From the NCBI GenBank assembly GCA_025602905.1, contig JAHLKI010000001.1, positions 2,480,001-2,544,000 on the forward strand: DNA of 64,000 nucleotides, written 5' to 3'. This DNA comes from Phlyctochytrium arcticum (Eukaryota; Chytridiomycota; Chytridiomycetes; Chytridiales; Chytridiaceae). This document shows, one piece after another, positions 34,660 to 46,723 of the stretch. The position numbers were made by a program, and so were the translations under genes. Numbering within the stretch: the stretch's first letter is position 1; each line of letters begins with the position of its first letter. The notes beneath the pieces are model-generated. The model was not told the DNA's origin. It searched no databases and saw nothing but the letters and a program-made list of their open reading frames with translations.

Positions 34660-35928
34660 ATGACCAAAACATTCTGGTTGACTTGTGCCGTTCTGGCCAA
34701 CACTATCACCGCTTCCGTTTGGGCAGTATCTCAGTCATTTCTGGATACCGAGCTTCGCAAATACGACGTGCACCCCCTCGATGTATCAGGCATTCACAGC
34801 CGTGTCCTGGACATTTCTGCCTATGGCCGTCCATTCCGAATGATCCTGCAACCCAATCATGATATGCATATCGAAAGCGAGAAAGGTACCAACGCGACGA
34901 ACCCGCTCTATTTCAGAGGCCATCTTCAAGGCCATGAGCATGATCCGGTTCACCACCTTCGTCTCAATTTGATCAACCTAGGACGAGGGATCCAAGGAAT
35001 TTTTGAGGTGCAGGCAACAGAAGGCGGAAATCTTCACGAAACATACTTCTTTGACACCCTAGACTCTCATCCATCTGGCCTACCGCATGTAAGTATATGA
35101 TCAACGAAGATTCCGTTTCGAGGGTGACCAATCTAATCATTTGCTCCTTTTCAGTATGTGATTTACCGCGATCAGGACCATCACGACAGGATTGATGCGC
35201 CTGCCGATCAAGGTCATTTGAAGAGGATTCTAAGGCGGAGGAGACTGGAGGCACGTCAGGCCAAGGGTGCCCCGGGAGCAGGCGCAGGGGGCGGCACATG
35301 CAAGGTCGGACTGGTTGCCGACAGCTCTTTTGCCCAAACGCTTGGAGGACCTGACGGCGCACAGGCCCATCAACTGATGATTAGCACCGTCAATTCCATC
35401 GCGGGAATCTATGAGAGGACCTTTGGTGTGAAACTTGTACCGATCAAAACTGTCGTCGACAACAGCGATGTTTTGGGACTGCAGGGGATGGGTCTCAACA
35501 GCCCAGGGACGCCAAACCCTCAACTCGACCTTTTCACGGCAAAACAAGCTACGGTTAAACTGGACCCGCGAGAGTCTTGCGTGAACATTCTATTTACCTA
35601 CCGTGATATGAGCACTGCTCTGGGTGTCGCCAACCTCGGTACTCCTCAGGGAGGAGGCATTTGTGATCCACAGAGACAAACGTCAGTTTTCACATTCCGC
35701 AACCCCAACAACAAACAACCACTAGAATCTTCAAAACTTATAACAATCATTGCTCATGAATTGGGTCATTCCTTTGGTTCTGCCCATGATGAGCAATACC
35801 CCGCTTGTCAAGCAACAGCGAATCAGTGGGTCATGGCCGCCGTGGTCTCCGGTTCAACAACGTTCAGTGAATGTAGTATCCAGGCTATTCAAGCCCATAT
35901 GGCAACCTCACGCTGTTTGAGATTGTGA
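34660..35928 (+). CDS. Secreted ADAM-type (M12B) metalloprotease, array copy 1
   Basis: Two exons, 34660-35088 and 35155-35928, around a 66-nt phase-0 intron, giving 400 residues. A signal peptide (about residues 1-21) is followed by a reprolysin-type prodomain beginning LRKYDVHPLDVSG. A basic cluster at about 170-173 (RRRR) suits furin or kexin processing. The catalytic domain starts near GTCKVGLVADSSFAQ. The zinc site HELGHSFGSAHDE (344-356) has the HExxHxxGxxHD form specific to family M12B. The Met-turn (WVMAA) and TTFSECS follow. The protein stops there, with no disintegrin, Cys-rich or transmembrane part. The prodomain has no Cys, so no cysteine-switch latency is visible. A secreted endopeptidase is inferred; substrates are unknown. 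One of four tandem paralogues. Confidence 0.9.
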
Positions 35929-38702
35929 GATTTTGTAGCAAATGTCCAAAAGATGTGTTGTTTCCACGTTTATAGTAAAGTATATAGACTACATATAAAT
36001 ATTCGTCAGTCCGATGAAAGCCGGTCGTTCCGGACTATATTACATTTAGCACTCATGTAACATAATAGGATTTCCGCCATCGCAAGATGAGGGATCAAAG
36101 CTACAAGTCTGTAAAGTTCAGCATCCTGTCATCTCTCTGCAACTTTTAGAACTGACTTGCTTCTTGCGCATCTGGCTTCCTCGCCATCTGTTTGCTTTTT
36201 GCCATTCACTTTACTATATTCTAAATTTGGATTAGACATGCAATCCGCACGCTGCTAATGTCTCCAGCTCTCCACTTGCGACTTTGGTTTTAGGCTGGAG
36301 GTACCAGGATATCCAACTTCTCGAATGAACGAGTACAGTAGTGAGTGGGCAAAGTGGCATTACTGATGCTACCTTTCGAAGCGAAAGTATCTGATGAAGA
36401 TGGATTAGAATTATGGAATAAATGAAGGCTAGCTTTGGCTGGAGTTTGACACTGCTGCGGATGAAAGAATTATGATGGAGAATGCACAACTGGTGCGTCA
36501 AGGTCGGCCATTCAACAGTTCCCTGGAAATATGTATTTCTGTTAAACTTCTGTACTCTGACATCTATTATATTTTAGCTGATAGTGCTGTTAGTGTATTT
36601 CATAATCTGGTAATGCGGACGTCGTTTGTCCTGGACGATATTTAGGCGTATTGGGGGTAATGAGGCCCTGCCTGCCCGTTATAAGTGTGTATCCTTTATA
36701 AGTAAAAATAGTTATTGAGGGTGGGTGGGCAGAAAATCGTCGGTATCACACCCAGGAAACAGAAAGAACATCCAGGGATGCCAAGGGCAGGGGCACTTAC
36801 GGTACTGTAGTTATGTTGTATGGGGTAATCCCGGGTCTGCTACTTATGAACCTCCGGTACTTTCCGATTTCATTCCCATACCGTATACCGGTACCGGTAT
36901 GCTGTTCAAACGGTAACTTGTAAATTCGTAGTCTTTGCTTTGACATGTTCTGTGCTTATAAATTCTTTACTTTTACCGTATCTCACTTCATATTCTTTGC
37001 AGATTATTCTGCATTTCACTAATTTGACATATATACTGAATTGTTTGAACCCCTGAGCTCATGTTGTGTTAGCAACTACATGTATACAAAACGTAAAGGA
37101 GAATAGGATTTCGTTTGATAGTATGACGAATAACGTTATGCGGCGAATTCCTAAAACTTTGTTCAGCTTCACCCCTGTTTTGGTCGATCAAACCCTGTTG
37201 TGGATGCACTACTTCCTGTTTCAAACTTTTCAAACAATTTTTTGCATATTCATAACTTGATGTAGAAACCTCTAACGATGCGCTTTACAACTTTCTTTCT
37301 TCGTGGATCGTTCCATAAGGAGTATTAAATAAAATGTATCACTGGCAAGTTTCGGGCGGCTTTGCATTCAATTCATTTCCTTGTGGCATTGCCCGATATT
37401 CGTGCCGTCGACTGCTCTCCCGATTCTCTTATTGGTATAAGGCTGGTGAGATTGCCAGTGTGATTTGCCCCGGCGGTGGAATTGTAACTGTCCTTATATA
37501 ACGCTACCGGCATGTGGGATGAAAGGCACAGGTCCTGCTATGAAAAGAAGTACCTCCAGAAATTGTTCGGGAAAATTTGAGACTGCAAGTCTGAGGTCCC
37601 CGAAACCACGGAGTTGGCAACAACAAGGAGGCTCTTGATGCCAGCGCCAGCGTACCAGATCTGATACAACTACTCTGGGATCCTTGCCGGTCACTACAGT
37701 AAGGAAAGTGGTTACCATCTCGGATGTTCCCAATGGTCAACACAATCCGTGTAGAGTAGGCTAACGTAAATGGGACAAAACACAGTTAAAGAATGTATAC
37801 ATAAGTAGAAAAAATAGGATGGGTCATTACAAGCAGCATATTTCAAAGGAAATACTACGAAGTGAGAAGTTGCATACCGTACGCTAAAGATACTTTTGTC
37901 ATACAATGTTCAACTTGGCCATATTTCGTTAGCATCAACATTCTCATACTATTTGTTCCGGTACCCCTGTCCATCTCAGGTCAGGTCAGGAATTAAAAAA
38001 TGGGGTGCCAAAAATTGCTGGATGCCATGAAAAATGATCCCAAAACACTCTCCAACTGTGTCCACTACCCATCTAGATTACCTTGATATACTCAAAAACC
38101 ACCCCCAAACATTCATACTATTTGTTCTAGTACCCCTGTCCATCTCAGGTCAGGTCCGAATTGATTAAAATTCCTAGAAATTTTGAGTTAAAAAAGTTGC
38201 TGGATGCCATGAAAAAACATCCCAAAACACACTCACTCTAAGTGTGTCCACTACCCATCCAGAATACTTTGATACACTCAAATATGGGAGTAACCCGTTA
38301 CGCCGAATCGCTGCACTGGAATATAGAGACTCTTCCACTCCATATTGCAACGGTCAAAATTGGGCATTACGTGCTCAGAACATTCTCTGCAACGCGTTTG
38401 GCAGCATCACACGTTCAAGACCCCGTTGTCCGACCCTGATCTGTCGCCTGGGACCCAACTTTCCCCCCAGTTCCAGGTGATTCCAGTTACGCGACAATCA
38501 GTTTCGATTGTTCCAAATCCTTAATGTGAACCTTGAAGGATGATCCGAAACGGGATCAATCTTGCTCGTTGTAGCCAATATCCTCGCCATGAATCCAGTG
38601 AAGTCACAACAGCAGGGAAAAGAATGGAAGGGGACAAAGTTACATAAAGCCTGACCCGCATCCAGCGTTCCCAACTTCACTACAACTTTTGGTTCTTCGA
38701 AA
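35929..38702. other. Long non-coding gap in the array
   Basis: 2.77 kb without a convincing gene; AT-rich. The 3' part carries blocks related to the upstream sequence of the later copies (near 37575-37620), two 169-nt direct repeats (37945-38283) and the shared GATCTG...CCTGGGACCCAA block near 38435. This could be the site of a lost gene copy. Confidence 0.5.
37945..38283. repeat. Two imperfect direct repeats of about 169 nt
   Basis: Copy 1 starts at 37945 and copy 2 at 38114. Both start CATACTATTTGTTC, continue TACCCCTGTCCATCTCAGG, and later share TTGCTGGATGCCATGAAAAA and GTGTCCACTACCCATC. They diverge in the middle. No coding frame. Confidence 0.85.
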
Positions 38703-39972
38703 ATGGCTACATTGTTTTGGTTAACTTGTGCCGTTCTGGCCAACACCATCGTCACCTCCGTTTGGGCACTACCTCAGTCATTTTTGGATTCGAAGCTTCG
38801 GAAATACGAGGTACATCCTCTCGATGTCTCGGGCATCCACAACCGTGTCCTGGACATTTCTGCCTATGGCCGGCCACTCCGAATGATCATACGTCCTGAT
38901 CTTGACATGCATGAAGAAAGCGACCATGGCACCAACGTCACAAATCCGCTCTATTTCACCGGCCATCTGCAAGGCCATGAGTATGATCCCGTCCACTTTC
39001 TTCGTCTCAATCTGATCAACCAAAGACAAGGCATTCAAGGGATTTTCGAATTGCAGGCACCTGAAGGCAGAAATCTGTATGAAACGTACTTCTTCGACAC
39101 CTTGGACTCTCATCCATCTGGTCAACCTCACGTAAGTATCTGATCAAGGGAGGAGCTTTTTTGGGGAGGGTGACCAATCAAACCATTTGCTCTTTTAGTA
39201 TGTGATTTACCGCGATCAAGACCATCACGACAGAATTGATGCCCCAGCCGATCAAGGCCACTTGAAGAGGATTCTAAGGCGAAGAAGACTGGAGGCGCGT
39301 CAGGCCGACGGTAGCCCGGGAGCAGGAGCGGGGGGCGGCACATGCAAGATCGGCCTGGTTGCTGACAGTTCTTTTGCTCAAACGCTTGGAGGACCTGACG
39401 GGGCACAGGCCCATGAACTGATGGTTGGTGCCGTCAATGGAATCACCGGACTCTATGAGAGGACCTTCGGTGTGAAACTTGTACCTATCAAGACTGTCGT
39501 CGACAACAGCGATGTTCTTGGGTTGCAAGATATGGGTCTCAACAGCCAAGGGACGGCAGAATCTCAAATTACCCTGTTTACGGCGAAACAAGCTTCGGTC
39601 AATCTGAACACGCAAGAGAGTTGCGCCAACATCCTGTTTACGTTTCGTAATATGGGCGTTGCTCTGGGTGTCGCCGCTCTCGGTACGGTTCAGGGAGGAG
39701 GCATCTGTGATCCAAAAACTCAAGTGTCCGTTTTCACATTTCGAGACGTCAAAACAAACCAACCCCGGGTGTCCTCTGAAATTCTTAACACTATTGCTCA
39801 TGAATTGGGTCATTCATTTGGTTCGATGCATGACGAGCAATACCCCGAATGTAAAGCAACAGCAAGGCAGTGGATCATGGCCGCAGTTGTCTCTCAATCA
39901 ACAACTTTCAGTGAATGTAGTATCAAGGCTATTCGAGAGAAGATGGCAAGGGCAGCCTGTTTGCGATCATGA
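38703..39972 (+). CDS. Secreted ADAM-type (M12B) metalloprotease, array copy 2
   Basis: Exons 38703-39131 and 39199-39972 around a 67-nt intron at the same phase-0 position as copy 1; 400 residues. Signal peptide, Cys-free prodomain, basic cluster and catalytic domain are as in copy 1, with zinc site HELGHSFGSMHDE and a Met-turn in WIMAAVVS. The most variable part among copies is the loop between GLQDMGLNS and the ESC motif, about 60 residues after the catalytic-domain start; the prodomain and zinc site are nearly unchanged. This copy looks intact. It has an Asn-x-Thr glycosylation site in the prodomain (NVTNPLYF). Confidence 0.9.
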
Positions 39973-41237
39973 GCTATTGTGACAGGACTACAAAAGTTTT
40001 TGTGGCAGGATTACAAAAACAAGTGTTTTTTTCCATACTGTACAGTAGAGTATATAGCGTATATATGCAGATTCATCAGTACAATCAAAGCCGGTGTTCG
40101 CAAGCTTTAATACATTTCGAGATGTTCTCAACAGCCCGGACCATGATTGGTGCTGCGCAATACATCAGACATCATGCGCAAGCCTGAATGATACGAGAGA
40201 AGTAGAAGTAGCAACTTAATTTTTCCGCTGACATTACCACGCTCACAATGTCAATTATCAGCCAGTGAACTATGATAATGGTACGTTATAAAAGGAGCAT
40301 AAAATGAAGGAGTTTCTTGGGGAATCTACATAGATAAGCTAAATTAGAGGGATCGGGCTGCACAGAAGACATTATCTGGGCGAAATACACCCGGACATTC
40401 TTGGTCAGGGAATACGGGGTTCTTAGATGCGATGACATATTCGGGAGTTGGAGTTTTTGGTCGTAAACTTTATAAATCTTTTGGTCCAAGGTAACGACCA
40501 CGGAAGGTTGACTGACTCCATCTGCCCAAAAAAAATCTCCGACGATTACGAGACTTGGATCTTTACAATTCACACTGCAAAGATCTTCATAATGCGACTA
40601 GTTATTTAGCCCCCACCCACCATCCTTTTTTAGTTGTGCCTGTATGCTTGTGGATGTGGGGCTGATAAACAAGCTTTTGGGGAGCGTAGCTCGATTGTTG
40701 CTTCCCTTCGAAAATTTGAAACAGCAAGTCTGGGGTCCCGAAGCCAGGTAGTTACCCATATCGAACAGGTTTTTTGGACAGTAATTAAGAGTCTATATGC
40801 TGTGAAAATAATAAATCTCGGGAATCATCATCTCCGCTGCAAGTTTTGGGTATAAACTACGTTAACTTAAACGAAGAAAAGTAGAGTTAAACTAAAAGAA
40901 TTTATATCTAAGTAACAAGCATAAAGGATGGGACAAAGCAAAGACTACCGTATAAAGTTACGAACAGAATCTGTCAAAGTAAAAATTATGGCAACAATAC
41001 ATGTTCAAGGCCCCACTGTCAGGGCTGTCAGTGAGCCTGATCTGCTGCCTGGGACCCAAAAATCTTGCCACTTGAGGAACAACTAGTCTCGTTTTTTCCA
41101 AACCCCCCTGACGCAAACCTCGAAAGATGGGTTCTGATCCCAACAGCCGGGAGAAGGTTGGAACGGGAGAAAGTTAAATAAAGCCTCACCCGTCTTCCGC
41201 ATCCTCAGGTTTACCACAATTTTCAGTTTCTTCGAAA
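39973..41237. other. Array spacer between copies 2 and 3
   Basis: 1.27 kb. The 3' flank of copy 2 shares an AAAGCCGGT...TTAATACATTT block with the other copies. Blocks near 40613-40775 recur before copy 4 at 43617-43780. No gene seen. Confidence 0.6.
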
Positions 41238-42497
41238 ATGACCAAATCATTCTGGTTGACTTGTGCCGTTCTGGCCAACACTCTCACTGCTTCCGTTTGG
41301 GGGCTACCGCAGTCATTCCTGGATACCAAGCTTCGGAAATACGAGGTCCATCTTCTCGATATATCAGGCATCCACAACCGTTTCCTGGACATTTCTGCCT
41401 ATGGCCGTCCACTCCGAATGATACTGCGTCCTGATCATGACATGCATGTGGAAAGCAACCGTGGTGCCAACTTAACAAATCCGCTCTATTTTACCGGCCA
41501 TCTGCAAGGCCATGAGTATGATCCCGTCCACTTTCTTCGTCTCAATCTGATCAACCAAGGACAAGGGATCCAAGGAATTTTCGAGCTGCAAGCAACAGAA
41601 GGCGGAAATCTTTACGAAACCTACTTCTTTGACACCCTAGACTCTCATCCATCTGGTCTACCACATGTAAGTATCTAATCAATAGAGAGGCCTTTTTTTG
41701 GCCAATCTCACCATTTTGCTTCTTTCCAGTATGTGATTTACCGCAATCAGGACCAACACGACAGGATTGATGCGCCAGCCGATCAAGGTCATTTAAAGAG
41801 GATTCTGAGGCGAAGAAGATTGGAGGCACGTCAGGCCAAGGGTGGCCCGGGAGCAGGAGCAGGGGGCGGCACATGCAAGATCGGACTGGTTGCCGACAGC
41901 TCTTTTGCTCAAACGCTTGGAGGACCTGACGGTGCACAGGCCCATGAACTGATGGTTGGTGCCGTCAATGGAATCACCGGACTCTATGAGAGGACCTTCG
42001 GTGTGAAACTTGTACCTATCAAGACTGTCGTCGACAACAGCGATGTTCTTGGTTTGCAGGATATGGGTCTCAATGGCCAAGGAGTGTCAAACTCTCTACT
42101 TCAAAGTTTCATAAAGAAACTAGCTGCGGTTAAGCTGACCCCGCAAGAGAGTTGCGCCAGCATCCTATTTACCTTTCGTCACATGGGCAATTCTCTGGGT
42201 GTCGCAACTAGCGGTCCTGAAGATGGAATTTGTGATCCCCAGACTCAAACGTCCGTTTTCACATTCCGAGACCCCACAACCAACCAACCCCGGGTGTCCT
42301 CTGACATTCTCAACACTATTGCTCATGAATTGGGTCATTCCTTTGGTTCGTTGCATGACGAAGACTACCCCGAATGTAAAGCAACAGCACAGCAGTGGAT
42401 CATGGCGGCACATATCTCTAAATCAACAACGTTCAGTGAATGCAGTATCAAGGCTATTCGAGAGAAGATGGCAAAGTCGCCCTGTTTACAATCATGA
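41238..42497 (+). CDS. Secreted ADAM-type (M12B) metalloprotease, array copy 3
   Basis: Exons 41238-41666 and 41730-42497 around a 63-nt phase-0 intron; 398 residues, two fewer than copies 1 and 2. Zinc site HELGHSFGSLHDE, Met-turn in WIMAAHIS. The variable loop after the catalytic start (GVSNSLLQSFIKKLAAVKL) differs sharply from the other copies, and the following loop lacks the Gly-Gly-Gly of TPQGGGICDP (here GPEDGICDP). These changes fall in surface loops that line the substrate groove in reprolysins, so altered specificity is plausible. Reading frame is intact. Confidence 0.9.
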
Positions 42498-44290
42498 GCT
42501 TTTGTGGCAGGAGAAAGATATAGAGTACATATACATATTCATCAGTTCGACCAAAGCCGGTCTTTGCGAACTTTAATACATTTTACGATCCTGTCAACAC
42601 CCCCGGCCAGGATTTGCTGCGCAAGACATCAAGCATTAAGCCCAAGCATGAGTGATGCGAGAGAGAGAAGTCAGTTCTTGCGTTTTTACCTGACAGTGCA
42701 ACCCTCAAGGTAGCAATTATAGGGTAGTGAAATCTGATGATGGTGCATTATAAAAGGAACTTAAATGAAGGAGTTTCTGCACTTGGGGACCTACATACGT
42801 AACGTAGTTTGGTAAATGTACCCATCTATGCGGATAATAGTTGTTTGAAATTTTGATACTGAACCATACGTACTCGCCGCATACCTTGTTAGTATACGAC
42901 TTTAGTTCAATGCTAAAAAGTCTTTGTTTAACGTTTATAGGGAACGGCAAAAATTATCGGAAAATTGCACTCCGATGCGTATGAGATGATCGATGGCGGG
43001 AGGTCCGATGGTTCAACATCGCAACGGTTCACACGCGATCAGTTCCTTTGATAGCTTTTCCGACCTACACTGCCACGCTGAAGACAATCATGAATATGGC
43101 AAACATATTTCCGAGCAGGATCTGTTTTGGCTATTGAGGTATTTTCGGACACGTCCTCATGAGGTTTGCGTGTAGGTACTGTATAAGCAGTTCGTAAAAT
43201 GAATTTGTCGGGTAAAATCATGGTTTGGTTTTCCATTTTTCAGGTCGACAAAATGACAGTCAGCATTAACAGCGGTGCTTCACAAATCATAAACGATGCG
43301 AAGGGGTAGTAGGTATAAGAAGATCGGTTTGTTCTAAAGGGTGCTTTCCGTACTCAAAATTGGTTTATGAGAGAAGGTAGTGTACTGGATGTTGGCCCAT
43401 CCTCGAGTTTACGCCCGGGGGACGAGGAATATACTCAATGCACCCGGACATTCTTGGTCGGAAGTGATGGCATATATTAGCAGTTCAGTGTATCGATTTA
43501 AGTAGTGGGTTTGAGTTTTGGTCAAAAATTCAATGAATCTTTTTTGACCCAAAAAATTCTCCGACGCTTACGAGACTTGATCTTTACAATTTCACACTGC
43601 AAAGATCTTCATCTAGCCCCCACCCCACCATCCCTTTTGAGTTGTGCCTGCATGTTTGTGGATGTGGGGGAGTTAGGCCGTTCTGCATATGAGCGATCGT
43701 GGCCTAGATGGAGAAAGTTGAAACAGCAAGTATGGGGTCCTGAAACCAGGTAGTTACCCATATCGAACAGGTTTTTATAAAAGTAAGTAAAAGCAAGAGT
43801 CTACAAGTCAAATAGAAAAGTGAAAAGTAAAAAGTGAAATCGTATTGTATCGGGAATCATCGTCAGATTTGTACCCAAGGCTGCTAATAAACTATGTTAA
43901 CGTTAAAAGAAGGTAAATCGTTAAACTTAAAGTTAAAGAATTTATACACAGGGCTGAGAGCAAAGACTGTAAAGTCACGAACAGCATATGTCATGGTAAA
44001 AATTATGGCAACAATACACGTTCAAGACCCCGTTGTCATTGACCCTGATCTGTTGCCTGGGGCCCAAGTTCTTGCCACTCGAGAACAACTAGTCTCGATT
44101 ACTCCAAACCCTTTGACGTATACTTAGAACGATGTGATCTGATTCGGGATCAAAAAGCTGCTTGCTCGTTGTAGCTAATGGTCCTCGTCATGGATCCAGT
44201 GTAGTCAGAGAAGGATGGAACGGGAGCAAGTTACATAACGCTTCACCCGTCTTTCGCATCACCATATTACAACTTTCAGGTTCTTTGCCA
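42498..44290. other. Array spacer between copies 3 and 4
   Basis: 1.79 kb. It contains the duplicated upstream blocks near 43617-43780 and the TTCAAGACCCCGTTGTC block near 44021 also found before copy 2. Short frames look random. Confidence 0.6.
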
Positions 44291-45560
44291 ATGACCAAAT
44301 TACTCTGGTTGACTTGTGCCGTTCTGGTTAGCACTCTCACTGCTACCGTTTGGGGGCTACCGCAGTCATTCCTGGATACCAAGCTTCGGAAATACGAGGT
44401 CCATCCTCTCGATGTGTCGGGCATCCATAACCGTGTCCTGGATATTTCTGCCTATGGCCGTCCACTCCGAATGATCATACGTCCTGATCTTGACATGCAT
44501 GTGGAAAGCGACCATGGCACCAACTTGACAAATCCGCTCTATTTCACGGGCCATCTGCAAGGCCATGAGTATGATCCCGTCCACTTTCTTCGTCTCAATC
44601 TAATCAACCAAGGACGAGGCATCCAAGGAATTTTCGAAGTGCAGGCAGCAGAAGGCGGAAATCTTTACGAAACCTACTTCTTTGACACCCTAGACAATCA
44701 CCATCTGGTCAACCTCACGTAAGTGTATACTCAACGGAGAAGTTTTTCTGGAGAGAGTGACCCATCTAACCATTATACTCTTTCAGTACGTGATTTACCG
44801 CGATCAGGACCATCACGACAGGATTGATGCACCATCGGACCAAAGCCATCTGAAGCGCATTCTCAGGCGAAGAAGACTGGAGGCGCGTCAGGTCAACGGT
44901 GGCCCGGGAGCAGGAGCAGGGGGCGGCACATGCAAGGTCGGACTGGTTGCCGACAGTTCTTTTGCCCAAACACTTGGAGGACCTGACGGGGCACAGGCCC
45001 ATGAATTGATGATTAGCACGGTCAATTCCGTCACGGGAATCTATGAGAGGACCTTTGGTGTAAAACTTGTACCTATCAAGACTGTCGTCGACAACAGCGA
45101 TGTTATAGGATTGCAGGATATGGGTCTCAGCTGCGAAGCACTGCCAGACCCTCTACTTGAATTTTTCACGGCAAATCAAGCGTCGGTCAATCTCAACACG
45201 CAAGAGAGTTGCACAAATATCCTGTTTACCTTTCGCAACATGCAAAATGCTCTAGGTGTCGCCACTATCGGCACTCCTCAAGGAGGAGGAATATGTGATC
45301 CACAGAGACAAGCGTCAGTTTTCACATTTCGAGACGTCAACACCGGTCAACCCCGGGTGCCCTCTGAAATTCTCAATACGTTTGCTCATGAATTGGGTCA
45401 TTCCTTTGGTGCGCTGCATGACGAGACGTACCCCGAATGTAACGCAACAGCAGTGCAGTATATCATGGGTACATTTGCCTCTCAATCAACAACGTTTAGT
45501 GAATGTAGTATTAAGGCTATTCGAGAGAAGATGGCTAGGTCGCCCTGTTTACAGTCATGA
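44291..45560 (+). pseudogene. ADAM-type metalloprotease, array copy 4, frameshifted at the exon 1/intron boundary
   Basis: The same two-exon layout (44291-44718 and 44787-45560), but exon 1 is 428 nt instead of 429. One base is missing around 44693-44700, where the other copies read GACTCTCATCC and this one GACAATCACC. Splicing at the conserved GTAAGT donor then puts exon 2 out of frame, with a stop three codons after the join. Exon 2 itself is fully open (257 codons) and keeps HELGHSFGALHDE and the Met-turn region, so the damage is recent or bypassed. A GTCAAC site at 44708 would give a 417-nt exon 1 and keep the frame while dropping four codons, but it is a poor donor. Either a young pseudogene or a re-spliced gene. 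Confidence 0.75.
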
Positions 45561-46723
45561 TCTTTTGTGTGGCAGCAGGAATGCAAGAACAAGCGTTACT
45601 TTCTCCATATCTTACCGTAGAATATATAGAGTACATATACAGACTCATCTGTTCGACCAAAGCCGGTATTTGAGGGTTTTAATACATTTCACGATGCTGT
45701 CAACAGCCCGGACCAAAATGTGTGCTGCGCAATATATCAGGCACGCACCAAGCCCTCCTGACAGTGCTATTATCAAGCAGTGAAATAAGATCATGGTGTA
45801 TTATAACAGGAACTTAGAAGGGAGGAGTTTCTGCATAGGCAAGCATTTTTGAGCTTATTGGTAAATCTGAAGTATCACACATCTATGCGGATAAAAGGTG
45901 CCAGAAAACTTGATATTTCAACATACGTGCTCGCCGCATACCCTGTTATTTGGTTTGCGTACACCACTTTAGTTCAGTGCTGAAGTGCGAAGTAGTCTTT
46001 GTTCAAAGGTTTGGGCCAACTATTCACGATCATTTTTTGCGCTCGCCCTACCTATGTACCAGAATGTTGCAATTCTTACGTGCGTCCAATTGACCTGAGA
46101 ATGAAAAACACTCTTCATAAGATATGTGTCAGAATATGGGTCAAAATCATTATGAATATGGCAAACATATGTTCGAAAGGTCAACAGAACTCTGAACACA
46201 ACTTCCGTCGGGAATTTAATAATGTTAACGTAAAAAGACTAATAGAGATAAGTAAATGAATTTACACGTAAGTCAATTGTAAGGATGCATCAAAGCAAAG
46301 ACCCTGAAGTTGCGAACAGCTGGCGTAAAAATACGCTGTATGACTGTGCTCATTCAGTCAATTGACCTTGTAATATTCCCACATCATTATTGCACCTGTG
46401 CTTGATAATAAGATGAAGTTGATTGTATCACACCATGCATCACATATATGTCTCTCCCTTTATTTTTGGTGTCCAACGGAAGCTTTGATCGTGCTCCCGG
46501 AATTTCGGAATTTTGACCTCGCTCATCAATTTTTTAGTTCAGTAAAATTGCCTGGGCCGGCAAGCGCTTCCTTTACTCGTCAAATTTTCTCCGGAGAATT
46601 GAATAACTGTGCCATGCCAACTTGATCTCACGGCAAATTCGGGTATGCAACAGTTTATCCGTGTTTGTGGTTGTGTATGTACAAAATAGGGTCCCCCCCA
46701 AAAATAATCTATACAATCAAAAT
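45561..46723. other. Right border of the metalloprotease array
   Basis: 1.16 kb, AT-rich. The first 250 nt repeat the 3' flank of the other copies (AAAGCCGGT...TTAATACATTT). Similarity to the array spacers continues to about 46200. No gene recognised. Confidence 0.5.

What the first reader, a model, noticed from the sequence alone, without database searches (positions are those of the whole stretch)
34660..45560. Tandem array of four secreted ADAM-type proteases without disintegrin domains
Seen: four genes in the same orientation, each with signal peptide, Cys-free prodomain, RRRR cluster and HExxHxxGxxHD zinc site, a single intron at the same phase-0 position, and a stop right after the catalytic domain. 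Known: fungal ADAMs (e.g. fission yeast Mde10) are usually single, membrane-anchored and carry a disintegrin region. A short, soluble, clustered form is unusual, and in chytrids protease expansions accompany host or substrate digestion. The array looks like recent local expansion in a housekeeping neighbourhood.
Basis: partly seen in the sequence, partly recalled or inferred. Interest (0 to 1): 0.85.

Follow-up and report, generated by a model that had tools for sequence, protein, structure and literature searches.

The report
Chytrid array of secreted ADAM-type proteases
A chytrid fungus carries four side-by-side copies of a gene for a short secreted zinc protease whose core resembles animal ADAM10/ADAM17 but which lacks their adhesion domain and membrane anchor; the fourth copy looks broken, and what the enzymes do is not known.

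Summary
The window is from Phlyctochytrium arcticum. Four tandem genes (A 34660-35928, B 38703-39972, C 41238-42497, D 44291-45560) encode about 400-residue secreted pre-pro M12B metalloproteases with one shared phase-0 intron and a stop right after the catalytic domain. D is one base short in exon 1, so canonical splicing frameshifts it; the public model uses an unlikely donor. A fifth, unlinked short copy lies on contig C33 and a disintegrin-bearing ADAM on C10.

The short proteins carry the ADAM10/17 cysteine set, their best fold matches are ADAM17, and a catalytic tree puts them beside ADAM10/17-like proteins (94/84; 97/92 with five long rows dropped). Grouping with C10 is not rejected, and raw profile scores are highest for bacterial-type proteins. 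No other fungus was named in three protein searches. The array is not very recent (dS 0.30-0.54) and shows signs of gene conversion. Clustered S8 and M36 proteases exist in the same genome, so clustering is ordinary there. Most likely role: secreted digestive endoproteases (inferred). New variant of a known kind.

The parts
34660..35928 (+). Copy A: exons 34660-35088 and 35155-35928, intron 35089-35154; 400 aa by canonical splicing (public model P0001 has 393 aa)
38703..39972 (+). Copy B: exons 38703-39131 and 39199-39972, intron 39132-39198; 400 aa (P0002)
41238..42497 (+). Copy C: exons 41238-41666 and 41730-42497, intron 41667-41729; 398 aa (P0003)
44291..45560 (+). Copy D: exon 1 44291-44718 is one base shorter than in A-C, near its 3' end, so the frame is lost with the canonical intron 44719-44786; exon 2 44787-45560 is open. 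Probably a young pseudogene.
40523..41138 (.). Spacer before C, 70% identical to the spacer before D (43545-44143): part of the duplicated unit
46224..46319 (.). Spacer-like stretch downstream of D, 73% identical over 107 columns to 40861-40967: possible trace of a further unit or of the unit's old end

Best explanation
The array encodes secreted zinc endopeptidases of family M12B that consist of little more than a zymogen prodomain and an ADAM10/17-type catalytic domain. Shown from sequence: signal-like N-terminus, Cys-free prodomain, basic cluster, catalytic domain with all zinc ligands and the ADAM10/17 set of six Cys, then stop. Inferred: the zymogen enters the secretory pathway; the prodomain helps folding and blocks the active site without a cysteine switch; a kexin/furin-type protease cuts at the basic cluster; a soluble enzyme of about 210-220 residues leaves the cell and digests protein outside it. 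A, B and C are probably working genes whose catalytic domains have diverged while gene conversion keeps parts alike; D is probably a recently broken copy. The family probably arose from an ADAM10/17-like ancestor by loss of the disintegrin, Cys-rich and membrane parts, followed by duplication; it is not a recent truncated copy of the fungus's own C10 ADAM.
Confidence: 0.6

Rival explanations
1. The short family is a truncated, fast-evolving offshoot of C10-type fungal ADAMs; its resemblance to ADAM10/17 is retained ancestral cysteines plus long-branch effects.
For: Union with C10 is not rejected by the AU test; the prodomains of both contain a similar (Y/F)(R/K)DQD stretch (by eye).
Against: C10 lacks the first Cys pair, scores only 29.1 bits against the catalytic profile, gave no match to the prodomain profile, and has no intron at the shared site (by eye).
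Confidence: 0.2
2. The family came from bacteria by horizontal transfer of a secreted short M12B protease and gained an intron.
For: Same signal-prodomain-catalytic layout and an AYGR prodomain motif in bacterial-type proteins; they give the highest profile scores.
Against: Union with the 22 close bacterial-type rows is rejected (p-AU 0.0004); none of the 24 bacterial-type rows has the first Cys pair; a profile of the five chytrid proteins alone did not list the bacterial group at E<=10.
Confidence: 0.1
3. The enzymes act on the fungus's own cell surface or spore/zoospore coat in development, as the fission yeast ADAM Mde10 does in the spore wall, rather than in feeding.
For: Mde10 is needed for the normal outer spore wall (passage of PMC9214231).
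Against: Mde10 is of the membrane ADAM kind (recalled); the short proteins have no anchor. Nothing here tests the timing of expression.
Confidence: 0.15
4. Copy D is a working gene that uses the upstream GTCAAC donor, as the public model says.
For: Exon 2 of D is open to its stop (257 codons) and dN/dS of pairs with D is not raised; the public model P0004 is in frame.
Against: B carries the same GGTCAACC letters as ordinary coding sequence; GTAAGT is intact 11 nt downstream; none of the 11 other donors read here (5 short genes, 6 in C10 placed by me) has C at +3; D has an odd number of mature Cys.
Confidence: 0.2

Closest known systems
ADAM17 (TACE) and ADAM10, MEROPS M12B
   Same: Catalytic fold, HExxHxxGxxHD, Met-turn, the six-Cys set starting at TCK, basic processing site before the mature domain
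   Different: No disintegrin, Cys-rich or transmembrane part; no Cys in the prodomain
Fungal ADAMs (fission yeast Mde10; the C10 gene of this fungus)
   Same: M12B zymogen made for the secretory pathway
   Different: C10 has disintegrin and a TM-like segment, seven exons and lacks the first Cys pair. Mde10's own sequence was not compared here.
P-I class M12B enzymes of vipers (catalytic-only forms)
   Different: Different Cys set (recalled) and unrelated lineage; an analogy of layout, not a claim of membership
Bacterial-type short secreted M12B proteins (one named: a Steroidobacteraceae MAG protein)
   Same: Signal-prodomain-catalytic layout, AYGR prodomain motif
   Different: Lack the first Cys pair (24 of 24 rows); most of those aligned carry a Gly/Ser-rich C-terminal tail

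Membership tests
MEROPS M12B (adamalysin/reprolysin) | HExxHxxGxxH zinc site followed by Asp, and a Met-turn | tested here: met
   present in A, B, C, D exon 2 and the C33 protein
MEROPS M12B (adamalysin/reprolysin) | Family profile above curated cut-off | tested here: met
   Reprolysin_5 67-80 bits, cut-off 27
MEROPS M12B (adamalysin/reprolysin) | Reprolysin fold | tested here: met
MEROPS M12B (adamalysin/reprolysin) | Proteolytic activity | not testable with these tools
   no expression or enzyme data
ADAM (full architecture) | Disintegrin domain | tested here: not met
   no Pfam match in the proteins; the genome's only PF00200 match is on C10
ADAM (full architecture) | Transmembrane anchor | tested here: not met
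   no 19-residue stretch above KD 1.5 after residue 30; stop right after the catalytic domain
ADAM10/17 branch (catalytic domain only) | N-terminal Cys pair of the mature domain | tested here: met
   5 of 5 short proteins; that the two Cys pair with each other is recalled from ADAM17
ADAM10/17 branch (catalytic domain only) | Groups with ADAM10/17 in a tree | tested here: inconclusive
   94/84 in the full tree, 97/92 and 98/90 without long rows, but union with C10 not rejected
P-I venom metalloproteinases | Common descent with that class | not tested
   no such sequence was put in a tree
   neither listed for the short proteins; no M43 match in the genome at E<=0.001

The most novel reading that the evidence does not exclude
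A chytrid lineage turned an ADAM10/17-type sheddase, a branch not otherwise seen in fungi in these searches, into a family of free, catalytic-only secreted proteases by losing the adhesion and membrane parts. The copies have diverged in the catalytic domain, including the segment after the Met-turn that should shape the S1' pocket (AAVVSG, AAVVSQ, AAHISK, GTFASQ in A-D), so they differ in what they cut: an independent parallel to the domain-loss route described for P-I venom enzymes.
Probability: 0.35. Interest if true: 0.55.

Novelty: new variant of a known kind. Interest (0 to 1): 0.4.

Why it matters
If right, a fungus holds a minimal, soluble ADAM10/17-type catalytic unit with its own prodomain, useful for asking what the non-catalytic domains of ADAMs are needed for and how old the ADAM10/17 branch is among fungi and animals. 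It would also be a case of domain loss plus tandem duplication of an M12B protease in a fungus. As a gene array in a genome with other clustered proteases it is ordinary.

Tried and rejected
Bacterial origin was considered because one search returned 83 proteins, 5 own and most of the rest of one bacterial type (only P0073 is named, as a Steroidobacteraceae MAG; I call the others bacterial by resemblance). That profile contained one such protein, P0006. A profile of the five chytrid proteins alone returned 14 proteins, 5 own and 9 others, of which 8 carry the first Cys pair. The bacterial union was rejected by the AU test.

No remnant protease gene was found in the spacers by tblastn at E<=1. 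A divergence hotspot at residues 251-285 (22 of 35 columns replaced) is not significant by replacement-to-silent ratio against the rest of the mature domain (p 0.38, chosen after looking), so no positive selection is claimed. M43 in the own genome: none at E<=0.001. tRNA genes in the window: none.

Papers. Searches that touch M12B/reprolysin, ADAMs and fungi: 0 papers hold M12B, chytrid and metalloprotease; 63 papers, 20 listed; 33, 15 listed; 84, 15 listed; 2,855, 12 listed, none of the 12 holding M12B or reprolysin; 71, 12 listed; no listed title is about such enzymes in chytrids; four papers name P. arcticum. Passages only were seen of PMC7804941, PMC8887899, PMC9214231, PMC8778642, PMC4885070, PMC10406608, PMC3796257 and PMC6690862; others only as listings. 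The Mde10 paper is not held.

Limits: the three protein searches score only proteins 0.55-1.75 times the query length that share short words, and only the 7,992 and 7,991 candidates sharing most words, so most long fungal ADAMs could not appear.

Full report
Host and place. The protein search identifies the genome as Phlyctochytrium arcticum, a chytrid fungus. The window is contig C1, 2,480,001-2,544,000, of a 31.48 Mb, 91-contig assembly. Of ten window ORFs scanned, nine have a Pfam match: a short-chain dehydrogenase, a peptidoglycan-binding-like domain, SIR2, ceramidase, a TFIIS-like domain, two TPR pieces (IFT88-like, recalled), SelO and inorganic pyrophosphatase. The 'housekeeping neighbourhood' is fair.

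The genes. Copies A-D lie in one orientation at 34660-45560. Each encodes about 400 residues: hydrophobic N-terminus; Cys-free prodomain with one sequon, N78, shared by all five short proteins; basic cluster LRRRRL; then a mature domain from GTCK with HELGHSFGxxHD, a Met-turn and six Cys (seven in D); and a stop straight after it. Pfam models above cut-off are all M12B. The single intron (63-68 nt in A-D, GTAAGT) sits after codon 143 in A-C, at the matching place in D, and at the matching place in a fifth gene on contig C33. Protein identities are 76-84% within the array and 55-59% to C33, leaving out nine codons of D.

Copy D. Exon 1 is 428 nt against 429 and canonical splicing gives an early stop. 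The database model P0004 instead gives an in-frame protein four residues shorter than 400, which needs a GTCAAC donor 11 nt upstream of GTAAGT. Copy B has the same letters there as plain coding sequence. D also carries a seventh mature Cys and an altered post-Met-turn segment. Exon 2 is still open and dN/dS of pairs with D is not raised. A young pseudogene is the simplest reading; use of the weak donor or an assembly error remains possible.

The rest of the family in this genome. Six M12B loci were found: the four of the array, C33, and an ADAM on C10. The C10 gene, spliced by hand, encodes 792 residues with catalytic domain, disintegrin (61 bits), further Cys-rich stretch and a TM-like segment. 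PF00200 has one match in the genome, in that gene.

Relatives elsewhere. A single-sequence search found the five own proteins and one bacterial-type protein at E<=0.001. A profile including that protein found 83 proteins, mostly of that bacterial type. A profile of the five alone found 14 proteins at E<=10: five own and nine others, two of them named as nematode disintegrin-bearing proteins. In a 41-row catalytic alignment (row labels mine where no name is given) the first Cys pair is present in all 5 short proteins and all 9 ADAM10/17-like rows, and in none of the other 27. The tree joins these two groups with 94/84, and with 97/92 or 98/90 after dropping five or eight rows. Union with the 22 close bacterial-type rows is rejected (p-AU 0.0004); union with C10 is not (0.0695, 0.147, 0.176); nor is C10 with the ADAM10/17-like rows alone (0.0594). 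Against this reading, raw catalytic-profile scores are highest for bacterial-type proteins (61.8 against 54.5 bits for the best ADAM10/17-like row and 29.1 for C10), and the prodomain profile alone finds nothing significant outside the family.

How the array evolves. Between copies dS is 0.30-0.54 and dN/dS 0.23-0.39: purifying selection overall, and not very recent. The 98 informative sites split 38, 35 and 25 over the three possible pairings and are clustered (48 equal neighbours; 11 of 10,000 shuffles reach this). B and C share a 119-nt identical run, while neighbouring 25-codon windows are 89% and 68% alike. Both point to gene conversion or unequal exchange. In A-D the mature domain has 83 replacement and 45 silent columns, residues 23-189 have 36 and 47 (Fisher p 0.0028, columns taken as independent). 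The segment after the Met-turn differs between the copies; that it lines the S1' pocket is recalled knowledge of metzincins. Upstream DNA shares blocks between the copies, among them a CTGGGACCCAA-like and an ATAAA-like stretch, so they may be regulated alike.

Context. The genome has 31 S8 matches, eight of them within C5:800,324-857,450 and three within C28:266,362-272,729, and ten M36 matches, in about five genes by position, two of them adjacent on C1. Whether those are secreted was not tested. Clustered proteases are therefore not special to M12B here.

Conclusion. A family of catalytic-only, secreted M12B proteases with an ADAM10/17-type catalytic domain, seen so far in one chytrid, in a small array with traces of gene conversion and one probably dead copy. 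Digestive function is the default inference; nothing here tests it.

Noticed in passing
G000 C5:800324-857450, C28:266362-272729, C11:493149-496710: Clusters of S8 (subtilisin family) matches: eight, three and two in these stretches.
   Followed up: no
G000 C1:994177-998904: Two neighbouring M36 (fungalysin) genes; about five M36 genes in the genome by position of the matches.
   Followed up: no
window 34660-35928 and 44291-45560: Public gene models P0001 and P0004 use other splice sites than the sister genes.
   Followed up: partly
window 37937-38282: Two adjacent copies of a 160-175 bp sequence, 79% identical, in the A-B spacer.
   Followed up: no
window 46149-46319: Spacer-like stretches downstream of D with no protease gene after them.
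   Followed up: no
L005 2583-3449: ORF of 288 aa beside the C33 copy with a helix-turn-helix-like stretch (by eye).
   Followed up: no
P0084, P0085, P0086: Short eukaryotic-type proteins (377-390 aa) with an ADAM10/17-like catalytic domain, a Cys-rich stub and a TM-like segment but little room for a prodomain.
   Followed up: no
L024 1224-3290: Burkholderia multivorans ORF of 688 aa, a secreted M12-like protein.
   Followed up: partly
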